The notes below the pieces were generated by a model. The model did no database searches, was not told where the DNA came from, and saw only the letters and a list, made by a program, of their open reading frames with translations. From assembly GCF_001270065.2 (NCBI RefSeq), contig NZ_LFYT02000012.1, positions 1 to 64,000 on the forward strand: a DNA stretch of 64,000 bases, in the 5' to 3' direction. The stretch's first letter is position 1; each line of letters starts with the position of its first letter. Origin of the DNA: Limnohabitans planktonicus II-D5. Lineage in GTDB: Bacteria > Pseudomonadota > Gammaproteobacteria > Burkholderiales > Burkholderiaceae_C. Shown in pieces: positions 6,928-17,836 of this stretch. The position numbers and the translations under genes were made by a program.

Positions 6928-7839
6928 ATGAGCATCGAATTCAAAGGCCGCGTGGCCATCGTCACCGGCGCAGGTGGCGGGCTGGGCAAACAGCATGCCC
7001 TGGCACTGGCCGCACGCGGTGCCAAAGTGGTCGTCAACGACCTGGGCGGTGACGTGCACGGGGTGGGCGGCTCAGTGTCGGCCGCACAGGCGGTGGTTGA
7101 CGAAATCCGCGCTGCGGGTGGCGAGGCGATTGCCAACGGCGCTTCTGTGACCGACTTTGAAGCTGTGCAAAAAATGGTGCAGCTGGCCATGGACACCTGG
7201 GGCCGGGTGGATATTTTGGTCAACAACGCGGGCATCTTGCGTGACAAGAGCTTTGCCAAGATGGAGCTGGCCGACTTCAAATTGGTGATGGATGTGCACG
7301 TCATGGGCGCGGTGCATTGCACCAAGGCCGTGTGGCCCATCATGCAGGCGCAAAATTATGGCCGCGTGGTCATGACCACTTCGTCGAGTGGCCTGTATGG
7401 CAACTTTGGACAGGCCAACTACGGGGCGGCCAAGATGGCGCTGGCGGGCCTGATGCAAACCCTGTCGATTGAAGGCGAAAAACACAACATCCGCGTCAAC
7501 GCGCTGGCCCCCACCGCCGCCACCCGCATGACCGAAGGCCTGATGCCCGAGCAAGTGCTCAAGGCCCTGGAGCCCAGCGCCGTGGTGCCCGCCATGCTGG
7601 TCATGGCCAGTGAGGACGCGCCCAACCGCACCATCATCTGCGCCGGCGCGGGCAGCTTTGAGGTGGCCCACATCACCCTGACCCAAGGCGTGCACCTGGG
7701 CACCGGCCCCGACACCCCCGAACGCCTGGCCCAGGCCCTGAGCCAGCTGCACGACACCCAAGGCGAAACCGTGCCCCGCTCGGGTTCAGAACAAGGCGCG
7801 CTGGAAGTGGGCAAAGCGATGAAGGCGCATGGGGCTTGA
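6928..7839 (+). CDS. SDR family dehydrogenase, (3R)-hydroxyacyl-CoA type
   Basis: A 303-residue NAD(P)-dependent short-chain dehydrogenase. It has the cofactor motif TGAGGGLGKQHA near residue 13, NNAG at about 96-99, the catalytic Ser in TTSSSGLYGN, and YGAAK with Tyr and Lys. The insert NDLGGDVHGVGGS after the second strand and the length match the dehydrogenase domain of MFE-2-type (3R)-hydroxyacyl-CoA dehydrogenases, which act in beta-oxidation-like pathways. The start has AAAGGAAAA a few bases upstream. It appears to be a single-gene unit. The 80-bp gap after it shows nothing recognisable. Confidence 0.88.
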   Translation: MSIEFKGRVAIVTGAGGGLGKQHALALAARGAKVVVNDLGGDVHGVGGSVSAAQAVVDEIRAAGGEAIANGASVTDFEAVQKMVQLAMDTWGRVDILVNNAGILRDKSFAKMELADFKLVMDVHVMGAVHCTKAVWPIMQAQNYGRVVMTTSSSGLYGNFGQANYGAAKMALAGLMQTLSIEGEKHNIRVNALAPTAATRMTEGLMPEQVLKALEPSAVVPAMLVMASEDAPNRTIICAGAGSFEVAHITLTQGVHLGTGPDTPERLAQALSQLHDTQGETVPRSGSEQGALEVGKAMKAHGA

Positions 7840-7918
7840 ACCGCGAATTGAGCCGGGTAATCAAGCGGTTCAGGGACAGCATTCTTGGTCAAGAACTCCA
7901 GCCTGAATCAGGCCCAAC

Positions 7919-8719
7919 TCAGGTCAATTGCCTCGCCAAAGCTTGCAATTGAGGGGCAATGCGTTCTCGTAGCCAGACCTCGTCCAAGGCCCGCCCTTGA
8001 AATGAACAATTGATGGCGGCAAGCTCCCCCCGGTCAATGCGCCCCAAAGGGACGGCGACAGCTTGCACATCGGGGAAGACCTCTCCGACCGACACGCAGC
8101 ATCCGTACTTGGGATACTGGAGCAAATTTTCCGTGAGCTTGGGGCCAAACCTGTGCCAGTCCTGAGGCGTTTTGACCTGAATCTGGTTGAGCAAGGCTTC
8201 ACGTTCAGGGGGGCGGCAAGACATCAGGTACGCCCGGCCGATGGCTGTGCCCGCCATCGAGTGGCTGGTGCCGACTTCGAGGGGGTAAATCCTTTTGTCA
8301 AAAGACCTCACGGTTTCAATGTAGAGGATGGCCAGTCGGTCGCGAATGCCGATGGAGATGGAGCCACCCGTGGCCTCGGCCAACTCCAGCATCAGAGGGC
8401 GGGCTTGTCTGCGCAAGGTGAACTGTGCCAGCAAGGGATGACCCAAGGAAATCACGGCCGAACCCAACTGGTACTTGCCGTAATGTTCGGTGGGCATCAA
8501 GTAGCCCATGCACATCAGGGTGTAAGTCAATCGGGAGATCGTGGCCGCAGGCAGCTTCAATTTTTGGGACAAGTCCTTGTTTCCCAGCACAGCTTGTTCG
8601 GGCGTGAAGCAGCGCAGCAACTCCATGCCACGCGCCAAGGTGGTGGCAAATTGTTTGTCCCCGGCGTACTCCTGAAGGCTGGCGGGCGCACGGTTGGGAG
8701 GTGTCTCGAGTTTTGGCAT
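7919..8719 (-). CDS. IclR family transcriptional regulator
   Basis: A 266-residue regulator. The N-terminal winged helix (about residues 25-85, GMELLRCFTPEQAVLGNKDL...LPAATISRL) is followed by the effector-binding domain with SMAGTAIGRAYL and a conserved Cys in YGCCVSVGEVFPDV. The ATG at 8719 starts MPKLETPP. An upstream ATG at 8761 would run through the putative operator. It is divergent from the oxygenase operon, the usual arrangement for an IclR protein controlling an aromatic catabolic operon in response to a pathway metabolite. Confidence 0.9.
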   Translation of the reverse strand: MPKLETPPNRAPASLQEYAGDKQFATTLARGMELLRCFTPEQAVLGNKDLSQKLKLPAATISRLTYTLMCMGYLMPTEHYGKYQLGSAVISLGHPLLAQFTLRRQARPLMLELAEATGGSISIGIRDRLAILYIETVRSFDKRIYPLEVGTSHSMAGTAIGRAYLMSCRPPEREALLNQIQVKTPQDWHRFGPKLTENLLQYPKYGCCVSVGEVFPDVQAVAVPLGRIDRGELAAINCSFQGRALDEVWLRERIAPQLQALARQLT

Positions 8720-8725
8720 ATTGGA

Positions 8726-8789
8726 ATATTGTTCAATATATCGAAATTTAACCTGAATCAAGACCTTGCCCTCACTAGACTGGGTCTTG
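8726..8789. promoter_or_regulatory. Divergent control region with two inverted repeats
   Basis: The gap between the IclR gene and the oxygenase gene holds ATATTG-tt-CAATAT at 8726-8739, a perfect 6-bp inverted repeat directly in front of the iclR ATG. A second inverted repeat, CAAGACC...GGTCTTG, spans 8759-8789. Either could be the operator for the IclR protein. The AT-rich segment 8735-8752 is where promoter elements would be expected. This is inference from symmetry and position. Confidence 0.5.
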
Positions 8790-8837
8790 TAACAAAAATG
8801 CCATCACCAAAGAGTGACGGGCCACAGGAGACAAGAC

Positions 8838-10280
8838 GTGCAACTCAACGATTTGCCCAGCCACGAGATACCCGCGCTGAATGGCAACAATGCCCCCATT
8901 CACCAAGAAGATGTATTCAAGGACATGACGGTCATTGGGCAGGTGCCCAGTGATCTGAATGGCCTGTATGTGCGCAACGGACCCAATGCTTACTACCCAC
9001 CCGAGTGGCGATATCACGCCTATGACGGTGATGGCATGTTGCATGCCGTACGTTTCGAAAACGGTCAGGTGACTTACCGCAATCGCTGGGTCAAAACATC
9101 GGCCTTGCAGGAAGAGCAAGCTGCAGGGCATGCCCTGTGGAAGGGTCTGAAGGAGCCTTGGCGCACCGACCGTCCCGATGAGCCTTTGAAGAACACCGCC
9201 AACACGGACGTGAAGTACCACGCGGGTCGTTTGATCAGCATGTGGTACCGCTCAGGTATGCCCTATGCGGTAGATCCTGACACCCTCGAAACCCTTGGAC
9301 CGTCAGACTTTGATGGCAGCATCAACCGCTTATCGGCCCATTCGCGGCCCGACGAACACACTGGCGAATTGCTGTTTTTTGACTACAGTCTGAAAGCGCC
9401 CTACATGCAATACGGCGTGGTCGGTCCAGACCGCCAGATCAAACACAAAATCGATGTGGACCTGCCAGGCCCCAGTTTGCCGCACGACATGGCGATCACC
9501 GAGCACTTCACCATCTTGCATGACTTTCCCTTGCGCCCCGACCCCGAGGCACTTGCCGCAGGGCGCTACAAGTTGCGTTTTGATGCAGACCAACCCTCTC
9601 GTTTTGGCGTCCTCCCGCGCTACGGGCAGCCCCATGACATTCGCTGGTTCCATGCCAAGCCCACTTATATGTTGCATGTGGTCAATGCCTGGGAGGATGG
9701 CGATGAGGTGGTCATGGTGGGCACACCTTACCGACTGCACGAAGATGAGCAAGGTCGTCCCGATGCACGTCGACTTGAAAAAACCATCCATCTGCGCCAG
9801 CGCGATTTCATGCTGTATGAATGGCGCTTCAACCTGGCCACCGGCCAAACGCATGAGCGCGTGATTGACGATGTGCTCAACACCGAGTTTCCGGTCATCA
9901 ACAGTCTCTACCAAGGGCGCAAGAACCGCTACTCCTACAACATCATCTTTCCCCAGGGCGGCAAGGAAGAGCCGCGCTTTCCGGGCCTGGTCAAGTACGA
10001 CCTGAGCACGGGGGGGTATTTGGCCTACAGCGCGGGGCCCAAGTATTTCTACAACGAGCCTGGATTTGCACCACGAGACAACGCGCAATCCGAAGACGAT
10101 GGCTATCTGGTGGTCCCTGTTTGGAACCCGGACGAGCAACGTTCAGAAATCCAGGTGTTCGATTGCAAGGGTGCACGTATGGCCGAAGGTCCAGTGGCCC
10201 GCATTGTCTTGCCTCGCCGCATGCCGCATGGCTTTCACGCCACATTTGTCAGTCAAAACACCCTGAATCGCTGGAAATAA
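8838..10280 (+). CDS. Carotenoid/stilbene cleavage oxygenase (RPE65 family)
   Basis: A 480-residue non-haem Fe(II) dioxygenase of the carotenoid cleavage oxygenase/lignostilbene dioxygenase family. The four iron histidines are visible: SAHSRPD (about 168), LPHDMAIT (about 216), QPHDIRW (about 266) and GFHATF (about 465). NGPNAYYP and YHAYDGDGM near the N-terminus are also typical. The enzyme splits a conjugated double bond, giving two aldehydes. The GTG at 8838 was chosen because CAGGAGACAAGAC sits just upstream; GTG at 8814 is also possible. It starts an operon with a CoA ligase, hydrolase and TctC receptor, which suggests catabolism of a stilbene or phenylpropanoid rather than pigment synthesis. 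Confidence 0.87.
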   Translation: MQLNDLPSHEIPALNGNNAPIHQEDVFKDMTVIGQVPSDLNGLYVRNGPNAYYPPEWRYHAYDGDGMLHAVRFENGQVTYRNRWVKTSALQEEQAAGHALWKGLKEPWRTDRPDEPLKNTANTDVKYHAGRLISMWYRSGMPYAVDPDTLETLGPSDFDGSINRLSAHSRPDEHTGELLFFDYSLKAPYMQYGVVGPDRQIKHKIDVDLPGPSLPHDMAITEHFTILHDFPLRPDPEALAAGRYKLRFDADQPSRFGVLPRYGQPHDIRWFHAKPTYMLHVVNAWEDGDEVVMVGTPYRLHEDEQGRPDARRLEKTIHLRQRDFMLYEWRFNLATGQTHERVIDDVLNTEFPVINSLYQGRKNRYSYNIIFPQGGKEEPRFPGLVKYDLSTGGYLAYSAGPKYFYNEPGFAPRDNAQSEDDGYLVVPVWNPDEQRSEIQVFDCKGARMAEGPVARIVLPRRMPHGFHATFVSQNTLNRWK

Positions 10281-10282
10281 AC

Positions 10283-12028
10283 ATGATCCTGGTCTCATCC
10301 GAAAACATCAAAAATTATGTCGAACAGGGCTGGTGGACAGAGGAAACTCTGGGCGAGTTGTTCATCAAAACGGCAGAGCAGCAATCACAGGCCATGGCCG
10401 TTGTGGACCCGCCCAACCGCAGTGACATCTCAGGCGATGTCTCCTTGAGTTGGACCTGGGGGCAATTGCTGCAGCAAGTCGGCAGGTACAGCGCCCTGCT
10501 GCATGCGCAGGGTTTGCGCAAGGACGACGTGATCGTCATGCAATTGCCCAACTGTGTGGAGATGCATGCCATTTACCTGGCGTGCGCCATGACGGGTGTG
10601 GTGGTGTCGCCTGTGCCGGTGCAATACCGCGCGCATGAGCTGACGCATGTTTTTGCCACCACGCAAGCCAAACTGGCGATCACAACCGAACGTGTGGGCA
10701 ATTACCCTGCTGCGCAACAATGGGCCGCGCATGCCCACCTTTTTGAAGGCTTGCAGCACATTTGGTCTTTGGGTCATGACTTGCCGCAAGGTGTGCACAA
10801 CCTGAACAACTTGCTGGGCAACACCTTGCCATGGAGTGCGCCCCAGTTGCGACAGCACATGCACGACGAGGGTGTGACGGCGCATGATGTGCTCACCATT
10901 TGTTGGACTTCAGGCACGGAGGCCCGTTCAAAAGGGGTGCCTCGCAATCACAACGAGTGGTTGATTGCAGGCCAATCCGTCAGCGACGCAGGGCAGTTGC
11001 AACGGGGGGCTCAGATGTTGATTCCTTTCCCCTTTGTGAACATGGCCGGCATTTCATCGAGCCTGGCGGCCTGGCTGGTGGTGGGCGGCACTTTGCACCA
11101 CCACCATCCCTTTGATCTGGATGTGTTCGTGAACCAGTTGCGTGCACACCCCATGGATTACAGCGTGGCAGCGCCTGCGGTGCTCAATTTGCTGCTCAAA
11201 CAAGCTGAAAAAATGGAGGGCGCTGACCTCAGTCGCCTCAAAAGCGTGGGCTCCGGCGGTGGACCTTTGTCCGAGTGGATGATGGAGGAGATGAAAAACC
11301 GTTTCGACATCGAAGTGGTGAATTATTTTGGCTCCAACGAGGGTGCAGCTTTGAGCTCGTCGCCTCAAGACATGCCAGAACGCAAGCAGCGCGCTTTGTA
11401 TTTTCCTCGCATGGGGGTGCCAAGCTTTACCTGGAAAACGTCAGTCGCCCAGAAAATCCAGACACGCCTCGTGGACATCGACACCGGAGAGGACATCCAC
11501 GAAGCGGGACGCATTGGTGAGTTGCGCTTCAAAGGCCCGACGATATTCAGTGGCTATTACAAAGCACCGGAATTGACCGAGCGCGCTTTTGATGCGCAAG
11601 GGTTTTACCGAACCGGTGATTTGTTCGAAATTGCAGGCGACGCTTCACAGTTCTACCGTTTTGCCGGACGGCACAAGGACATCGTGATTCGTGGGGGCAT
11701 GAACATTTCCTCTGAAGAGATCGAGGGCTTGTTGCTGAGTCATCCCCAAGTGCGTGATGCTGCCGTGATTGGACTGCCTGATCCGGTCATGGGTGAGAGG
11801 GTGTGCGCTGTGGTCGTCGCACAAGCCGGTCAGGACATCACCTTGCAAAACCTGGTGGACTACCTCAAGCACACCCAGGAAGTCGCAGCCTTCAAATGGC
11901 CGGAAAAATTGATCCTTCTCGATGAGTTGCCCCGCAACCCGGTGGGCAAAGTGCTCAAAAGACAATTGCGTGAACGTTTTGCTGCAGAACCCTCTGCCCC
12001 ATCAGCCATGGCTGGAGCCACCTCTTGA
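10283..12028 (+). CDS. AMP-dependent acyl-CoA synthetase
   Basis: A 581-residue adenylate-forming ligase. The phosphate loop reads TICWTSGTEARSKGVPRN. FGSNEGAAL and the hinge GDLFEIAGD...YRFAGRHKDIVIRGG follow, and the C-terminal catalytic lysine is in NPVGKVLKRQL. It would activate a carboxylic acid with ATP and CoA. It begins 2 bp after the oxygenase stop. An obvious role is to activate the acid formed after the oxygenase aldehyde product is oxidised. No aldehyde dehydrogenase gene is present in the cluster, so that step must be supplied elsewhere. The exact substrate is unknown. Confidence 0.87.
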   Translation: MILVSSENIKNYVEQGWWTEETLGELFIKTAEQQSQAMAVVDPPNRSDISGDVSLSWTWGQLLQQVGRYSALLHAQGLRKDDVIVMQLPNCVEMHAIYLACAMTGVVVSPVPVQYRAHELTHVFATTQAKLAITTERVGNYPAAQQWAAHAHLFEGLQHIWSLGHDLPQGVHNLNNLLGNTLPWSAPQLRQHMHDEGVTAHDVLTICWTSGTEARSKGVPRNHNEWLIAGQSVSDAGQLQRGAQMLIPFPFVNMAGISSSLAAWLVVGGTLHHHHPFDLDVFVNQLRAHPMDYSVAAPAVLNLLLKQAEKMEGADLSRLKSVGSGGGPLSEWMMEEMKNRFDIEVVNYFGSNEGAALSSSPQDMPERKQRALYFPRMGVPSFTWKTSVAQKIQTRLVDIDTGEDIHEAGRIGELRFKGPTIFSGYYKAPELTERAFDAQGFYRTGDLFEIAGDASQFYRFAGRHKDIVIRGGMNISSEEIEGLLLSHPQVRDAAVIGLPDPVMGERVCAVVVAQAGQDITLQNLVDYLKHTQEVAAFKWPEKLILLDELPRNPVGKVLKRQLRERFAAEPSAPSAMAGATS

Positions 12029-12720
12029 GACCTGTCCTCTTGCTGATTCAAGGCATGCTCAATGATGCGGGTGTGTGGGCCGATGTGCTGCCTTTGCTGC
12101 CCCAGCATTGGGAAGTGCGCTTTGCCCAGATACAAACTCAAGACAGCATTGCAGCCATGGCCCGTGATGCCTGGGCGCAACTGTCCGATCTTTCGGCGGA
12201 CACATCCGTGATGGTGGCCGGATTTTCTTTGGGCGGCTATGTGGCCATCGAGATGTTGGCCAATCCACAAAGGACTTTGTCCGCGGCGGCGCTGATGTCC
12301 ACATCGCCTTTGCCAGAGACCGATGAAGGTCGGCATGTGCGTGAAAAAACCATGGCGGCCATGCAGGCCAATTTCCCCAAGGTGGTGGAGGGGATTGTCA
12401 AATTCGGTTGCCACGAGGCGACTGAGGCTGTTCAGGAGCGCGTGCGTCAAATGATATTGGCCGTCGGTTGCGAAACGGGTTTACGCCAGACACGCGCCAT
12501 CATGGGGCGCAGTGATCACCGCCATGCACTGTCCCGACTGACACTGCCTGTGGCGCTCCTGTGCGGAGAGCATGACCGTGTGACACCGCCCGCATTGACC
12601 CATGAATTGGCGCAATGCCTGCCGCATGCCCAGATTCATATCGTCCCAGGCAGTGGCCACATGCTGCCTGTTCAGCAAGCGCAGGCCGTAGCGCGTGTGC
12701 TGTCTTCCCTGCATCCTTGA
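12025..12720 (+). CDS. Alpha/beta hydrolase
   Basis: A 231-residue alpha/beta hydrolase. The nucleophile elbow is GFSLGGY (Ser about 73), the acid is probably the Asp of CGEHDRVT, and the histidine is in GSGHMLP near the C-terminus. It starts with TTG overlapping the ligase stop as TTGA, so it is translationally coupled to it. Likely activities are ester or thioester hydrolysis in the same pathway. Family members of this size are too varied to name a substrate. Confidence 0.82.
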   Translation: MRPVLLLIQGMLNDAGVWADVLPLLPQHWEVRFAQIQTQDSIAAMARDAWAQLSDLSADTSVMVAGFSLGGYVAIEMLANPQRTLSAAALMSTSPLPETDEGRHVREKTMAAMQANFPKVVEGIVKFGCHEATEAVQERVRQMILAVGCETGLRQTRAIMGRSDHRHALSRLTLPVALLCGEHDRVTPPALTHELAQCLPHAQIHIVPGSGHMLPVQQAQAVARVLSSLHP

Positions 12721-12748
12721 AATGAACCCTTTAACCAGAGAGAGTCCT

Positions 12749-13726
12749 ATGAAAAACCCCCTGTCCTGCTTTGCCATACTGGCTGCCTTGCTCCTGGGCA
12801 TGGCCACAGTTCAAGCACAAAACTTTCCCGACCGCCCTGTGCGCGTGGTCGTGCCCTTTGCCCCAGGCAACACCCTGGACAATGCCTTGAGACAGGTGGC
12901 AGAGGAGTTCAAGAAGAACACAGGTCAGCCCATCGTGGTGGACAACAAGGCCGGTGGGTCAGGCATCATCGCGGCTCAAAACGTCATGCAAGCGGCTCCT
13001 GATGGCTACACATTGCTGTTGTCCAACACCAGCATGATGACCATCAACCCCTACACCTTTGCCAAGTTGCCTTACGACCCTGAAAAAAGCTTCAAACCGG
13101 TCACCGGATTTTTGGGCGCTTCACTGGTTTTGGCCGTGAATGCGGCCAATGTGCCCGCCAACAACGTCAAGGAGTTCGTGGCTTGGGCCAAAACGCAAAG
13201 CGGTGGTGTGTCTTATGCATCGTTTACAGCTGGAAATTCATCCCACTTTGCGGGTGTGATCATGAATCAGCGCACAGGGCTGAACATGCTGCATGTGCCC
13301 TTCAATGGCACCCCGCCAGCCGTGCAGAATTTATTGGGTGGCCAAGTCCATGCTGCCTTCTTGCCGCTTTTGGCAGTCAAGTCCCACGTCGAATCGGGCA
13401 AAGTCAAAGTGCTGGCCGTGTCCAGTCCGCAGCGCTCGCCCCTGCTGCCCCAAGTGGCCACTTTCACAGAGCAAGGGCTGCCTGATCTCGAAATCTACAT
13501 CTGGTCCGGGCTGTCTGCACCTGCTGGCACGCCGGATGCCGTGATCAGCAAACTGCAGGCCGAATTTTCCAAAATTCTCAAGTCACAAACCATCATTGAG
13601 AAGTGGCGTGCGATTGACTTTGAGCCATTGCCTTTCAGTGCTGCTGAGTTTCTGGCGTTCACCCGCAATGACGCCAAACGCTGGCAAGAGGCGGTCAAAA
13701 TATCGGGGTTCAAGGCCAGCGAATAA
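12749..13726 (+). CDS. Tripartite tricarboxylate transporter receptor, Bug/TctC family
   Basis: A 325-residue periplasmic binding protein. The signal peptide (MKNPLSCFAILAALLLGMAT...VQAQ) is followed by the Bug hallmark FPDRPVRVVVPFAPGN. The substrate loops VDNKAGGSGIIAAQNV and the characteristic DGYTLL are also present. It captures an organic acid for a TctAB-type permease. No tctA or tctB is next to it, as is common for the expanded Bug families of Burkholderiales. As last gene of the oxygenase operon it probably binds the acid that the ligase activates. An alternative ATG lies at 12722. Confidence 0.9.
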   Translation: MKNPLSCFAILAALLLGMATVQAQNFPDRPVRVVVPFAPGNTLDNALRQVAEEFKKNTGQPIVVDNKAGGSGIIAAQNVMQAAPDGYTLLLSNTSMMTINPYTFAKLPYDPEKSFKPVTGFLGASLVLAVNAANVPANNVKEFVAWAKTQSGGVSYASFTAGNSSHFAGVIMNQRTGLNMLHVPFNGTPPAVQNLLGGQVHAAFLPLLAVKSHVESGKVKVLAVSSPQRSPLLPQVATFTEQGLPDLEIYIWSGLSAPAGTPDAVISKLQAEFSKILKSQTIIEKWRAIDFEPLPFSAAEFLAFTRNDAKRWQEAVKISGFKASE

Positions 13727-13772
13727 ATTGATTAACCCTTCGCCATCAATCGGGCGCACTCTTTGTGATCCG

Positions 13773-13892
13773 GCCCTTTGAAGTCTGCAGGATGACTTCA
13801 ATCTTGCACCTGGTGGGAGCTCGCCCTGCTGACGATCAGACGCTTGTGGACCACAGGCCTTTCGCTTGGCTGGCAAGCTCCCCAAAAATCCT
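13773..13892. repeat. Degenerate GTGGGAG-type REP and a repeated fragment
   Basis: GTGGGAG at 13813 begins a decayed hairpin, and an inverted GGCTGGCAAGCTCCC-like half ends at about 13892. The same stretch shares CGGCC(C)TTTGAAGT and GATCAGACGCTTGT with 21094-21134 after the MscS gene, so both places carry pieces of one older repeat. The rest of the gap from 13727 to the caspase-like gene contains the mltB remnant and one decayed GTAG-type palindrome. No gene is credible in it. Confidence 0.5.
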
Positions 13893-14094
13893 CCCAAGGG
13901 GCAAGACAAGGCTCAGACTTCATCGGGCCAAATCAATAACTGAAAGCAAGTCCCCCTTGGGCTCCACTTGTTTCATGTTTGTCAAACTCGCTCGCGCCCG
14001 AGGTCACACCTATGCCCAAATCGTGGAGTCCTATCGCGACGCCAGCGGTGAGCCGCGTCAGCGCAACTCCGATCTACGGCGAACGTGTTGTCGG

Positions 14095-14120
14095 GCGGTG
14101 GTCGAAGACTGCGACGCATG
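14095..14120. repeat. Decayed GTAG-type palindrome
   Basis: GTCGGGCGGTGGTCGAAGAC...GCGAC keeps the GTCGAAGAC hairpin tip of the right-hand half of the array unit but has lost the exact head. A matching, also decayed, left half (ACTCCGATCTAC) lies at about 14066-14078. Confidence 0.5.
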
Positions 14121-14171
14121 TTTTTTTCGCTGCATCGCCAGAGCGGGCAAGACCCGGCGCGCGAAACGTCG

Positions 14172-14231
14172 GCATTTCCCGCGCAACCTCCTCGGCCAAC
14201 TCGATCACCTCCATGGCGTAGTCGCTGCTCC
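14172..14231 (-). pseudogene. Remnant of an mltB 3' end
   Basis: About 60 bp matching the last codons of the intact mltB gene at 16424-16481. Translated on the minus strand, the remnant reads WSSDYAMEVIELAEEVAREM; the intact gene has WSSYYAMAVIELAEAVTREM. The 5' side is cut off sharply beyond the Trp codon. Lying just downstream of the caspase-like gene, it forms with the intact copy a pair of direct repeats around the block 14265-16395. It has no start and cannot be expressed as a protein on its own. Confidence 0.75.
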
Positions 14232-14264
14232 ACGCAAAACAACTAATGAGTAGCACTTCGTCGC

Positions 14265-15284
14265 TTAACGTGGCGGAATGAAATAAAAGTCGCCGACGAC
14301 TTGGTCATAGATCGCCGGCACCTGCTCGTGGCCTATGCTGCGTGCTTTCTCCACAACCTTCTTTCTGACTTCCCGTACGACGTTATCCACCCTTATGCCC
14401 GGTGCATACATTTCCTCAAGCAAGATGCGGGTGAACAGACCATTGGGGCTTGTGTCCCCTGAGCCGACCTTATCCAGGGCCTGCTGCCCGGAGCCTGCCG
14501 AGAAAATGATCATTTGTCCTGAGGCTGCCATCGTTGGCGCTAGGCCACGTCCGCCGATGGCGCGGCCCCGTCTTGGAAAGGGGTTGTCCCGGCAAGCGTC
14601 TATCAAGGCTAGCGTGAACTTCGCGTTTTTCTCGCTCATGTCGTCCAGCAAACGCTGAAGTTGCACAGCCTCGTCCTTCACTTGGTCCTCGGATTCACCC
14701 TTGATATCCGTAGGGAGAAGGTAATTTGTGCCCGAAAGCTGTAATCCATGACCGGCATAAAAAAACAGCACCTCGTCACCGCTGTTTACGCTTTCCTTGA
14801 ACTGGCGAATCACCGCCCTCATGCTCTTTTCAGACAAGTCCGTCTTGAGGGTGACGTGATAGCCAAGATTGGACAGGCTTTTCGCCATCGCCTGTGCATC
14901 GGCTCGGGCGTTCTGCAATTTGGCGACAGATTCATATGTGTCATTACCGATGACCAGCGCCTTCTTGTACGGAAGCGCCGCGATGCGAATCGACTTGTCG
15001 ATCGTGGGCTTCGCAGGTTCAGCGTTCTCGACTTTAGTCTGCATACGCTCCTTCTCCCTGCGCTCCAATTCAGCTGTTATCTTTTTTTGCAGTTCTTCTT
15101 CTAATCTGGCGGGATCCGACTCTCTGCCGGTAAACCTTGATTCACTTGTGGAGGACGATGGAGGGGGGCGGCATTTGTCTGGGTTCTTGGCGCATTCGAA
15201 GAAATTGACCTGCGCACTAACGTTCACGCAAAGGAAAAGGCCGAGCATGCAAGTCCCAACTCTATTGACGAAACTGGATGACAT
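14265..15284 (-). CDS. Secreted caspase-like (C14 family) protease
   Basis: A 339-residue protein. A signal peptide (about residues 1-25) is followed by a short Cys-containing segment (FFECAKNPDKC), a Ser/Pro-rich linker, a charged helical stretch (residues 58-92, probably coiled coil) and a caspase p20-like domain (about 100-339). The catalytic pair is visible: His179 in FFYAGHG and Cys231 in LIDACRDNPF. Family members cleave after basic or acidic residues; specificity here is unknown. The start overlaps the upstream gene by 23 nt and has a strong AAGGAGGAG ribosome site 7 nt before the ATG. Base composition is visibly less GC-rich than the neighbours, consistent with transfer. Confidence 0.88.
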   Translation of the reverse strand: MSSSFVNRVGTCMLGLFLCVNVSAQVNFFECAKNPDKCRPPPSSSTSESRFTGRESDPARLEEELQKKITAELERREKERMQTKVENAEPAKPTIDKSIRIAALPYKKALVIGNDTYESVAKLQNARADAQAMAKSLSNLGYHVTLKTDLSEKSMRAVIRQFKESVNSGDEVLFFYAGHGLQLSGTNYLLPTDIKGESEDQVKDEAVQLQRLLDDMSEKNAKFTLALIDACRDNPFPRRGRAIGGRGLAPTMAASGQMIIFSAGSGQQALDKVGSGDTSPNGLFTRILLEEMYAPGIRVDNVVREVRKKVVEKARSIGHEQVPAIYDQVVGDFYFIPPR

Positions 15285-16050
15285 AGGACTCTCCTCCTTC
15301 GAATTTCAGCTTTATTTCACCCGTGATTTTCTTTCTCCAAAAGCTGTAGGAAACGTCGCCAAAGTTGAATTCACCCCGGCGGTCTGGAACGCATCGAACG
15401 GGAATCTTAAATCGCTTATCCGACTGCATAAGTGCGTCGAGCCTGTCAATGCCTTTCATTTGAGATTCGAAAATGTCAAGCTCATACCGACACAACTCAC
15501 TGCCATCGAAGCCGAAGATTCCCGCGTTTTTGCTTCCCATGGTGAGTAGAACGGGTGCCCTGCTGCCAGACCCATCAACGAGGTCGGCCGCGAGCTTGAA
15601 AGATTCGTCCAGCAGCAATTCATCGTCATTCGACTTCCAGAGGGCCCGTTTCCGGCCGTGAATCGTTAACTCCGTTTCAAGTACGGACCTACAAGCACAG
15701 ACCTGCTTGACGTCTGGTGGCAGCAATGACAACTTCTCTTCAAACATCCGCTTGTTGCAACCGTCTTCCGTGATCTTGCGGTCGGCAGGGGTGATAGTGC
15801 CGTTCCAGCGGGTATATGTCCATGCGCTGATGGGGCAGAAACGTGGGGGCGAGTAAACGATCCAGTCGGCGGTGGTGGCGCGGTTGGCATATGCGCCTTT
15901 TTGAATCTGCAACTGGTACTGGAACCAGGGCAGGCTCAAGATCGGTTTAACTTCGCCAGATTGCATCTTGACGTCAACAAGGTCGAATTGCGCCAATGCG
16001 TTGACATGAAAGGCAATCAACGACAGCAGACAAAGGAGTGTCCTCATCAC
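15262..16050 (-). CDS. Secreted Cys-rich protein of unknown function
   Basis: A 262-residue protein I do not recognise. A clear signal peptide (MRTLLCLLSLIAFHVNALAQ) leaves a mature part of about 240 residues with six cysteines (in RFCP, GCNK, VCAC, LCRY and VRCV), enough for three disulfides. There is no transmembrane segment after the signal and no known enzymatic motif. Its 3' end overlaps the caspase-like gene by 23 nt, so the two are made together. It could be a substrate, inhibitor or partner of the protease. Codon and base use resemble the caspase-like gene and differ from mltB. Either of two adjacent ATGs could be the start. Confidence 0.75.
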   Translation of the reverse strand: MMRTLLCLLSLIAFHVNALAQFDLVDVKMQSGEVKPILSLPWFQYQLQIQKGAYANRATTADWIVYSPPRFCPISAWTYTRWNGTITPADRKITEDGCNKRMFEEKLSLLPPDVKQVCACRSVLETELTIHGRKRALWKSNDDELLLDESFKLAADLVDGSGSRAPVLLTMGSKNAGIFGFDGSELCRYELDIFESQMKGIDRLDALMQSDKRFKIPVRCVPDRRGEFNFGDVSYSFWRKKITGEIKLKFEGGESYVIQFRQ

Positions 16051-16173
16051 GTTTGCGCCAGATGCGTTGTAAACGGCTCAGTTTAGCTCCAAAGCGGGCT
16101 GCAACGCTTTTAGTCAGAGCGTTTCATTGGCATTCCCTCAAACCTGTAGACACTTTCACTGTTGTTGATCCAG

Positions 16174-16395
16174 TCAAACCCAACCTTGGCGCCAAACGCT
16201 GTCATCCTGCAGTTCACGCCAGGCAATCACCTGTGTCGCCTTGGAAAACACCGCTTCGATTTCCACCAACTCGATCGGGTCGGTGGGCAACTCAGGTTGA
16301 ATCACCCGGCTGACCAAGAAATGCTTTTGCTTGGCCACGGGCTTGACCGCCGTCCACTTGGTCAGCAGCAGTTTTTTGGAGTTCAGCGGGTTCAT
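16174..16395 (-). CDS. Small Trp-containing conserved protein (TIGR02450-like)
   Basis: A 73-residue protein starting MNPLNSKKLLLTKWTAVKPV, with three tryptophans in conserved settings (KWTAV, AWREL, WRQGW). This matches the small tryptophan-rich conserved family known as TIGR02450, whose function is unknown. It starts 12 bp after the mltB stop on the same strand and is probably in its operon. It is short but the family resemblance is strong. The 123-bp gap to the next gene downstream (16051-16173) holds only a weak stem-loop at 16103-16123. Confidence 0.8.
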   Translation of the reverse strand: MNPLNSKKLLLTKWTAVKPVAKQKHFLVSRVIQPELPTDPIELVEIEAVFSKATQVIAWRELQDDSVWRQGWV

Positions 16396-16407: not shown

Positions 16408-17574
16408 TCAGCGACTGTTGTGCATTTCCCGCGTTACAGCCTCGGCCAACTCGATCACCGCCATGGCGTAGTAGCTGCTCCAGTTGTAGCGTGTGATGGC
16501 GTAGAAGTTTTCTGTGCCGGCCACGTAGCTGGGTGGGTTGTTGCCGTTGCGCAATTCGATCAGGGCCAGTGGGCCGTTGTGGGTGAGAGCTGGGCCTTGG
16601 AGGGCGGCGCCTTTGGCGGTGAAACTGGCCGCGCTGAAGGTGGGCAGGATGTCGGGGGCAAGCAGGGCGTCCATGTCGGTTTGGCCGGGGGTGAGGGTCA
16701 CGGCGTAGTGTGTGGGCATGCCCGTGCGCCACTGGAAGGCCTTGAAGTAATTGGCGACTGAGCCGATGGCGTCAGTCGGGCTGCCAAACAGGTCGATGCG
16801 GCCATCGCCGTCGAAGTCCACGGCGAAGCGAGTCCAGCTGGACGGCATGAATTGCGGCAAGCCCAGCGCGCCTGCGTAGCTGCCGCGCACGGCCAAGGGG
16901 TCGGCTCCGCTTTTTTGGCTGAGCTGTAAAAATTGTTCCAGCTCGGCGCGGAAAAACGCCTGGCGTTCTGCTGCACGCGGGTGGGCCAATGGAAAGTGAA
17001 AAGCCAAGGTGCCCAAGGCGTCGACGATGCGGAAGTTGCCGGTGTTTTGTCCGTACAAGGTTTCCACCCCGATGATGCCGACGATGATGGCGGCGGGCAC
17101 GCCGTATTCGCTTTCGGCGCGCTCCAGGGCGGTGCGGTGGGCAAGCCAGAATCGGGTGCCTGCCTGGATGCGGATGGGCTCGATGAAGCGTGCCCTGTAA
17201 GCCCCCCAGTCTTTGGCCGTGGGGCTTGCGGGGGGCAGCACGAGTTTTTCCACCAGAGGCAGGCGCTGTGCTGACTCCAGCGTCTTGAGCACCCAGGCGC
17301 GGTCGAGTTGCAAGCGGCCGGCTGCGTCATGCGCCCAGGCCAGAACCTCGGGGTTGTCCATCAGGCGTGTGCCTTTTGCAGGGACTCTGGGGTGGTGTGG
17401 CTTGCGACTGGAAATCGGTGTTTGGGCCGTTTTGCCTGCTTGCTTGTCATGGCGGTTGACCGCCAGGGCGGCCTCTGACCAAGTCAGCGAGATCAGCAAA
17501 CCGAACAGGCCAGCGCACAAGGGGTTCAGGCGTGGTGCCTGCGGGGTGGTGTGAAAGTGGGCGAGAAAATTCAT
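16408..17574 (-). CDS. mltB: Lytic murein transglycosylase B
   Basis: A 388-residue periplasmic enzyme that cleaves the MurNAc-GlcNAc bond of peptidoglycan, forming 1,6-anhydro ends. An N-terminal hydrophobic export segment (residues 20-38) is followed by the transglycosylase domain. The catalytic glutamate is in GIIGVETLYG (Glu171), and GALGLPQFMPSSW and DFDGDGRIDL are the usual MltB motifs. There is no lipobox, so it is soluble or anchored by its signal rather than a lipoprotein. The last codons are duplicated in a diverged form at 14172-14231. Confidence 0.93.
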   Translation of the reverse strand: MNFLAHFHTTPQAPRLNPLCAGLFGLLISLTWSEAALAVNRHDKQAGKTAQTPISSRKPHHPRVPAKGTRLMDNPEVLAWAHDAAGRLQLDRAWVLKTLESAQRLPLVEKLVLPPASPTAKDWGAYRARFIEPIRIQAGTRFWLAHRTALERAESEYGVPAAIIVGIIGVETLYGQNTGNFRIVDALGTLAFHFPLAHPRAAERQAFFRAELEQFLQLSQKSGADPLAVRGSYAGALGLPQFMPSSWTRFAVDFDGDGRIDLFGSPTDAIGSVANYFKAFQWRTGMPTHYAVTLTPGQTDMDALLAPDILPTFSAASFTAKGAALQGPALTHNGPLALIELRNGNNPPSYVAGTENFYAITRYNWSSYYAMAVIELAEAVTREMHNSR

Positions 17575-17662: not shown

Positions 17663-17738
17663 ATGTCGGACGCTTCGAGTGCCGACCTACGGGGGACTGA
17701 TTGTCTTTTGTAGGTCGGTGGTCGAAGACTCCGATGAA
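17663..17738. repeat. GTAG-type palindrome pair (BIME)
   Basis: A complete pair: a left half GTCGG-a-CGC...GAGTGCCGACCTAC, about 20 nt of spacer, then GTAGGTCGGTGGTCGAAGACTCCGA. Changes on the two sides of each stem partly compensate. The 309-bp gap 17575-17883 otherwise holds only the upstream region of the deacetylase gene. Confidence 0.8.
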
Positions 17739-17836
17739 TGCGGGTTGATCGGTGAGGCTTTAGATGCGATGGGCGTCAGATATTGCAAGCTGGGCGTGGT
17801 AAGCTGAAATTGATAAACATGCAGTAATTCAAAAAA

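What the first reader, a model, noticed from the sequence alone, without database searches (positions are those of the whole stretch)
14265..16050. Two-gene cassette for a secreted caspase-like protease and a Cys-rich partner
The protease has a signal peptide, a coiled-coil stretch and an intact His179/Cys231 pair. Many bacterial caspase homologues are cytoplasmic and tied to large receptor modules. The partner is exported, has six cysteines and no recognisable family. The 23-nt overlap and the strong ribosome site show the two are made together. Lower GC than the flanks suggests acquisition. A periplasmic or extracellular protease with a dedicated inhibitor, activator or substrate is a plausible, apparently undescribed system.
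Basis: partly seen in the sequence, partly recalled or inferred. Interest (0 to 1): 0.75.

Follow-up and report, generated by a model that had tools for sequence, protein, structure and literature searches.

The report
Mobile exported pair with swappable effector
A bacterium carries two overlapping genes for an exported caspase-like protease and an exported cysteine-rich partner, and a related species has the same partner and the same short front tag joined to a quite different protein, which suggests a mobile plug-in system whose working end can be exchanged.

Summary
In detail: two overlapping exported genes (14265-15284, 15262-16050, minus strand), His179/Cys231 intact, six mature cysteines in the partner, strong ribosome site. 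The caspase alone is ordinary; exported C14 relatives are common in the family. The partner matches no family, but one clear homologue (37% identity, all six cysteines kept) exists in 1 other of 90 held genomes of the genus. There it again overlaps a second exported gene, whose start lies in the same partner codons. That protein shares only its N-terminal tag with the window caspase (Q.NFFECA.NP.KCR; 0 of 20,000 shuffles reach the score); its C-terminal part is not a caspase. So partner and tag are conserved and the effector is exchanged, which argues against a caspase-specific inhibitor or substrate. The second copy is cargo of a 7.9-kb element with DNA polymerase B and integrase at a tRNA-Arg gene; the window copy lies between 61-nt repeats of the mltB end in a hotspot. 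Most likely a periplasmic adaptor or sensor docking tagged effectors; function is inferred, from two instances.

The parts
14265..15284 (-). exported caspase-like protein (339 aa): signal peptide, Cys tag, coiled-coil-like linker, C14 domain
   Evidence: ORF; PF00656 E 7.3e-32; best coding frame of six
15168..15212 (-). conserved N-terminal tag, residues 25-39, QVNFFECAKNPDKCR
   Evidence: 12 of 15 residues identical to the second gene of the G682 pair; score 72 against shuffle mean 27.4, max 58, 0 of 20,000 reach it
14283..14966 (-). Peptidase_C14 domain; His179 at 14748-14750, Cys231 at 14592-14594
15030..15113 (-). coiled-coil-like helix, residues 58-85
   Evidence: helix in a low-confidence model (mean pLDDT 74 and 72 for residues 61-70 and 71-80)
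15262..16050 (-). exported Cys-rich partner (262 aa from GTG 16050; ATG at 16047)
   Evidence: homologue in G682 at 37% identity with all six mature Cys kept
15262..15284 (-). 23-nt overlap of partner end and caspase start; ATG lies inside the partner's conserved Tyr-Val codons
   Evidence: same T-ATG-TC arrangement in G682 (sequences; overlap lengths)
15291..15298 (-). ribosome-binding site AGGAGGAG of the caspase gene, inside the partner frame
   Evidence: sequence
14172..14232 (.). direct-repeat copy of the mltB 3' end, just past the caspase stop
   Evidence: 90% identical to 16422-16482
16422..16482 (.). the same 61 nt inside the 3' end of mltB
16174..16395 (-). DUF2389/TIGR02450 Trp-rich small protein gene between mltB and the pair
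16408..17574 (-). mltB, chromosomal anchor of the insertion hotspot
   Evidence: TIGR02282 E 8.2e-94

Best explanation
The two genes are one form of a modular, mobile, exported two-gene system. Shown: a constant partner (six conserved Cys) is encoded just before, and overlapping with, a second protein with a signal-peptide-like start, a constant 15-residue tag (two Cys, C-x6-C) and an exchangeable C-terminal domain, here a C14 caspase, in G682 an unrelated stretch; both copies lie in acquired DNA. Inferred: both are oxidised in the periplasm, where the partner works as an adaptor or sensor that binds the tag and holds, places or activates whatever effector is attached. In the window, an envelope or foreign trigger sensed by the partner would bring caspases together through tag and coiled coil and start cleavage (after Arg or Lys, as recalled for orthocaspases) of envelope proteins. 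The caspase domain came from a lineage in which another domain is fused in front of the protease; here the separate partner takes that place.
For: Partner homologue E 7.6e-52 in G682, six Cys kept. The next gene overlaps by 20 nt, with its start in the same Tyr-Val codons. Tag shared, 0 of 20,000 shuffles reach its score; C-terminal parts unrelated (score 29.0 against shuffle mean 29.6, 1058 of 2000 shuffles reach it); the G682 protein has no Pfam or NCBIfam hit at E<=1. Tag motif absent from 60 other caspase ORFs. The window caspase nests with the G665 fragment among eight N-domain-caspase proteins: 4-row clade 99/93, 10-row clade 83/85, the latter under the star threshold; their N-domains include Sel1 and weak M23-like ones. 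dN/dS 0.095 between window and G665 caspases. G682 element: 49-bp repeats at tRNA-Arg, PolB, integrase. Shared atypical codon usage of both window genes.
Against: Only two instances, so 'constant' and 'swapped' rest on one comparison. No structure of the partner (single-sequence model, mean pLDDT 34.6), hence no direct sign of binding. C..NP..C motifs also occur in an unrelated protein with a signal-peptide-like start (L156), so part of the tag may be a generic disulfide-stapled turn. The partner shows no similarity to two sets of fused N-domains (hhalign probabilities 0.14 and 0.10%). The nearest caspase relative (G665, 88% identical) lacks signal peptide, tag and partner: either a broken copy or a caspase that never needed them.
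Confidence: 0.5

Rival explanations
1. Exported protease with a dedicated inhibitor, activator or substrate: the partner contacts the caspase domain itself.
For: Overlapping genes and signal-peptide-like starts on both.
Against: The partner homologue is paired with a protein without a caspase domain; a caspase-specific inhibitor should not outlive the caspase.
Confidence: 0.15
2. Exported antagonism cassette: tagged toxin-like effectors delivered through a common partner (carrier or immunity) against neighbours or predators.
For: Constant front and variable end is the layout of polymorphic toxins (recalled); mobile context.
Against: No toxin-family hit for partner or G682 effector in the libraries scanned; a constant partner does not fit toxin-specific immunity. 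Secretion-system genes were not searched for.
Confidence: 0.15
3. Cargo that protects the mobile element or host at the envelope (entry exclusion or phage defence) by cutting or binding surface proteins, without sensing by the partner.
For: The G682 copy is cargo of an integrative element near its left repeat; the window copy sits in an insertion hotspot.
Against: PADLOC gives only a generic caspase hit for the protease and none for the partner; no phage or plasmid record in the two collections matches the partner by tblastn at E<=1.
Confidence: 0.15
4. Chance neighbours: an orphan ORF that happens to overlap an ordinary exported caspase.
For: The nearest caspase relative lacks the partner; the partner is missing from nearly all genomes searched.
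Against: The partner homologue is again joined to a tagged gene at the same codons.
Confidence: 0.05

Closest known systems
EACC1-caspase two-gene conflict system (Kaur et al. 2020, PMC7159879; section 33 read in full, other passages)
   Same: 5' constant gene plus 3' gene with a caspase and exchangeable domains; thought to act at the membrane
   Different: No family hit for the partner (so no EACC1 hit) and no membrane helix seen beyond the signal peptide (by eye); both proteins exported; the caspase is the C-terminal, exchanged part, not the constant one
Exported bacterial C14 caspases (orthocaspases, bacterial metacaspases; PMC3501461, passages)
   Same: PF00656, HC dyad, signal peptide, close relatives in the same family
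   Different: The close relatives carry fused N- or C-terminal domains; here only a short tag plus a separate overlapping partner gene
Pipolins (PMC7385651, start of abstract and passages), for the G682 carrier element only
   Same: PolB gene, tyrosine recombinase, att-like repeats at a tRNA gene
   Different: Not shown that the PolB is primer-independent; no PolB or integrase seen next to the window copy
Effector-associated domains (EADs; PMC7159879, passages)
   Same: Small modules that couple varied effectors to a partner
   Different: Those are domains said to pair by homotypic contacts; here a 15-residue Cys motif on exported proteins

Membership tests
Peptidase C14 (orthocaspase/paracaspase-like) | match to PF00656 over the curated cut-off | tested here: met
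   111.4 bits against cut-off 21.4
Peptidase C14 (orthocaspase/paracaspase-like) | catalytic His-Cys dyad | tested here: met
   His179, Cys231 invariant in 11 sequences, window included
Peptidase C14 (orthocaspase/paracaspase-like) | caspase fold | tested here: inconclusive
   best matches MALT1, E 3.4e-6, but the model has mean pLDDT 49.6
Peptidase C14 (orthocaspase/paracaspase-like) | proteolytic activity | not testable with these tools
   no assay
EACC1-caspase system | EACC1 domain with a transmembrane helix in the 5' gene | tested here: not met
   partner has no Pfam or NCBIfam hit at E<=1; that these libraries hold an EACC1 model is recalled, not checked
EACC1-caspase system | caspase of the EACC1-associated type over the cut-off (NF047832) | tested here: not met
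   61.3 bits against cut-off 140
EACC1-caspase system | caspase N-terminal with a variable C-terminal domain | tested here: not met
   caspase domain is at residues 107-334 of 339
Pipolin (carrier of the G682 copy) | PolB, tyrosine recombinase and att-like repeats at a tRNA gene | tested here: met
   PF03175 E 9.1e-13; integrase phrog_1 E 7.9e-60; 49-bp repeats, one overlapping tRNA-Arg
Pipolin (carrier of the G682 copy) | PolB of the primer-independent branch | not tested
   only distant plasmid relatives, 24.5-29.7% identity in the ten listed of 45 records; no tree built

The most novel reading that the evidence does not exclude
A mobile conflict system outside the cytoplasm: a constant oxidised sensor protein recruits interchangeable effectors through a 15-residue disulfide-stapled docking tag, so that any exported domain (a caspase here) can be plugged in; a periplasmic counterpart of EAD/EACC1 systems.
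Probability: 0.35. Interest if true: 0.8.

Novelty: new variant of a known kind. Interest (0 to 1): 0.56.

Why it matters
What exported bacterial caspases do is largely open. A partner that stays the same while the caspase is exchanged for another domain gives a handle: the partner and tag can be tested as the switch, and new effectors can be sought by searching for the tag next to the partner. If confirmed it would extend constant-component/variable-effector logic to the periplasm and to small integrative elements.

Tried and rejected
Partner as a known family: no Pfam, NCBIfam or PADLOC hit at E<=1; one PHROG at E 0.32; no PDB sequence hit at E<=10; with the two-row profile only E 0.74. Partner as a split-off fused N-domain: hhalign probability 0.14 and 0.10% against two sets. 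Class-wide weak hits to the partner (45 of 369 genomes at E<=1, own included) judged chance: I looked at the best one only (E 5.8e-4, L006), which by eye reads as a purine-biosynthesis gene (recalled). G702 hit (E 0.002, two stops) did not return with the profile at E<=0.01. Tag profile: 30 of 171 genomes at E<=0.1, but only the two training rows are strong; next best E 0.0023. A motif scan of the 30 loci (2 of the 32 listed places had none) found no other full tag with a signal peptide by eye: L147 and L167 matches lie antisense to AMP-ligase-like frames, L146 has FFECARNP without the second Cys, L148 and L164 have C..NP..C in other settings, L156 has repeated C..NP..C only. Partner structure: unusable. 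G682 effector: no Pfam or NCBIfam hit, weak PHROG hits at 0.008 and 0.018, no PDB hit below E 1.3, no viral or plasmid relative found. Scans of genome contigs, viral contigs, plasmids and phages for the partner found nothing; the contig scans are seeded on short exact peptides and reach close relatives only. Repeat unit as a widespread cassette system: PF09493 (DUF2389) is found once in 26 of the 28 (of 299) family genomes that have it, twice in two, the second match weak; among the 10 genomes an array was seen only in G665.

Full report
What is in the window. On the minus strand two genes overlap: the partner (16050/16047 to 15262) and the caspase-like gene (15284 to 14265). The overlap is 23 nt and AGGAGGAG lies 6 nt before the caspase ATG. 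The caspase gives PF00656 at E 7.3e-32; its closest solved relatives by sequence are MALT1 paracaspases, and a low-confidence model (mean pLDDT 49.6) also finds MALT1 first. His179 and Cys231 are invariant in 11 sequences, window included. The partner matches nothing in Pfam, NCBIfam or PADLOC at E<=1, only one PHROG at E 0.32, and no PDB sequence at E<=10. Each frame is the best of six for coding, and both have the same unusual codon usage.

The caspase by itself is not unusual. 119 of 299 sampled genomes of the family hold a relative at E<=0.001. In 35 regions that I chose from the listed matches, 44 of 46 distinct caspase ORFs score 1.5 or more in an uncalibrated signal-peptide heuristic that takes the best of several possible starts (one locus was fetched twice and is counted once; L118 and one frame of L123 fail). 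N-terminal helices that may be signal peptides on such proteins were noted in 2012 (PMC3501461, passages). A tree of 56 caspase domains puts the window copy and the G665 fragment among eight proteins that carry an N-terminal domain in front of the caspase (4-row clade 99/93, 10-row clade 83/85, 12-row clade 99/96, the last with two proteins of the other order). Those N-domains differ (Sel1 repeats in one, weak M23-like in two, unnamed in others). The own genome has two members of this group (C9 and C16) and a third, more distant caspase.

The partner is rare but not unique. At E<=0.001 it was found in 1 of 299 family genomes (own) and 1 of 398 phylum genomes (own). In the class sample (369 genomes) the listed matches at that level are own and one judged chance. 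In 60 genomes of the genus it found own, G682 (37% identity, E 7.6e-52) and a weak hit in G702 (E 0.002, two stops). A two-row profile over all 90 held genomes of the genus finds own and G682 only, at E<=0.01. These samples overlap. Window and G682 partners share all six mature cysteines.

The G682 pair changes the reading. There the partner (L139:8492-9274) is followed by an overlapping gene (9255-10094, 20-nt overlap). In both pairs the start ATG lies inside the partner's conserved Tyr-Val codons, as T-ATG-TC, behind a purine-rich site. The second protein begins, like the window caspase, with a signal-peptide-like stretch and Q.NFFECA.NP.KCR (12 of 15 residues identical). Over mature residues 25-100 the alignment score is 72, against a shuffle mean of 27.4 (sd 4.9, maximum 58; 0 of 20,000 reach it); the rest of the two proteins scores 29.0 against a shuffle mean of 29.6 (1058 of 2000 reach it). 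The G682 protein has no Pfam or NCBIfam hit at E<=1. The comparison is not circular: G682 was found through the partner, not the tag. The motif is in none of 60 other caspase ORFs. A profile of the tag over 171 relatives gives only the two training rows as strong hits; the rest, from E 0.0023 up, look like chance as far as checked.

Mobility. In G682 the pair is the first cargo inside 49-bp direct repeats (98% identical, 7,930 nt from start to start); the right one overlaps a tRNA-Arg(CCG) gene. Inside are also a DNA polymerase B (PF03175) and a tyrosine recombinase; the stretch has GC 0.408 against 0.555 beside it. This is the layout of pipolins (PMC7385651, start of abstract and passages), though the branch of the polymerase was not tested. 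In the window the pair lies between 61-nt direct repeats (90%) of the mltB 3' end; no recombinase was seen among the neighbours that I scanned. In G189, G264 and G087, of the same genus, mltB lies about 0.8 to 3.1 kb from the gene at 6928-7839, while the window has about 8.6 kb there, with an IclR regulator, an RPE65-type oxygenase, an AMP-ligase, a hydrolase and a TctC protein besides the pair. So the site is a hotspot; whether the 8 kb came in one or several events is not known.

A complication. The nearest caspase relative (G665, a Comamonadaceae MAG, 88% identical over residues 57-325) lies near the same anchor, but it lacks signal peptide, tag, partner and the last residues; its 3' end runs into a repeat that copies the end of the DUF2389 gene. 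In G665 contig C43, five copies and some shorter parts of the mltB/DUF2389 end separate unrelated genes. dN/dS between the two caspases is 0.095 (dS 0.65), so the domain was under purifying selection for much of the time since they split. The truncated copy most likely lost its front end in such a recombination, but this is inference.

Mechanism. Because the partner and the tag stay while the effector domain changes, the simplest reading is that the partner acts on the tag: an adaptor or sensor in the periplasm (both proteins have signal-peptide-like starts; the partner has six and the tag two conserved cysteines). The place of the partner, 5' of the effector, is where the fused N-domain sits in the sister proteins. 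Shown: overlapping layout, conservation of partner and tag, exchange of the C-terminal domain, mobile context. Inferred: oxidation, binding, sensing, activation, and any role in defence or competition. An inhibitor or substrate specific for the caspase is less likely, since the partner persists without a caspase.

Against known systems. Closest in concept is the EACC1-caspase two-gene system (PMC7159879, section 33 read): constant 5' gene, caspase-bearing 3' gene with exchangeable domains. The partner has no family hit, the caspase model NF047832 scores 61.3 against a cut-off of 140, and here the caspase is the exchanged part. I therefore file the protease as a new member of C14 and the pair as a new variant of constant-component/variable-effector systems, not as an EACC1 system. 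No description of such a pair turned up in the searches (open-access library only).

Noticed in passing
L087/L088 (G665:C43, about 10.4-23.4 kb): Five copies (aligned over about 220-375 nt), plus shorter pieces, of the mltB 3' end and/or DUF2389 gene separate unrelated genes downstream of mltB (caspase fragment, FkbM methyltransferase, ATP-grasp, IS30-like by eye, glycine-zipper, MscS-like), like a cassette array; another DUF2389 copy is on contig C25.
   Followed up: partly
window 7840-16170: About 8 kb (IclR regulator, RPE65-type oxygenase, AMP-ligase, hydrolase, TctC, remnants, caspase pair) has no counterpart between the same flanking genes in three congeneric genomes; insertion hotspot next to mltB.
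   Followed up: partly
window 13765-14253: Open frame without a Pfam hit, a likely decayed remnant; its middle resembles by eye (recalled) the N-terminus of an IS transposase; 14088-14120 also repeats 17708-17740 (85%).
   Followed up: no
L139:8220-16198 (G682): 7.9-kb integrative element at tRNA-Arg with an 891-aa PolB and a tyrosine recombinase; the polymerase has distant relatives on plasmids of Fusobacterium, Staphylococcus and Pseudosulfitobacter.
   Followed up: partly
L121-L124, L127-L129, L133, L134: Short exported caspases (268-298 aa) follow a gene with a membrane-helix-like stretch that looks (by eye, recalled) like an anti-sigma factor; may match the sigma-factor/metacaspase operons reported in 2012 (PMC3501461, passages).
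   Followed up: no
L156 (G1129): A 196-residue frame with a signal-peptide-like start and three C..NP..C motifs, the same kind of Cys turn as in the tag; hints that the motif is a wider exported building block.
   Followed up: no
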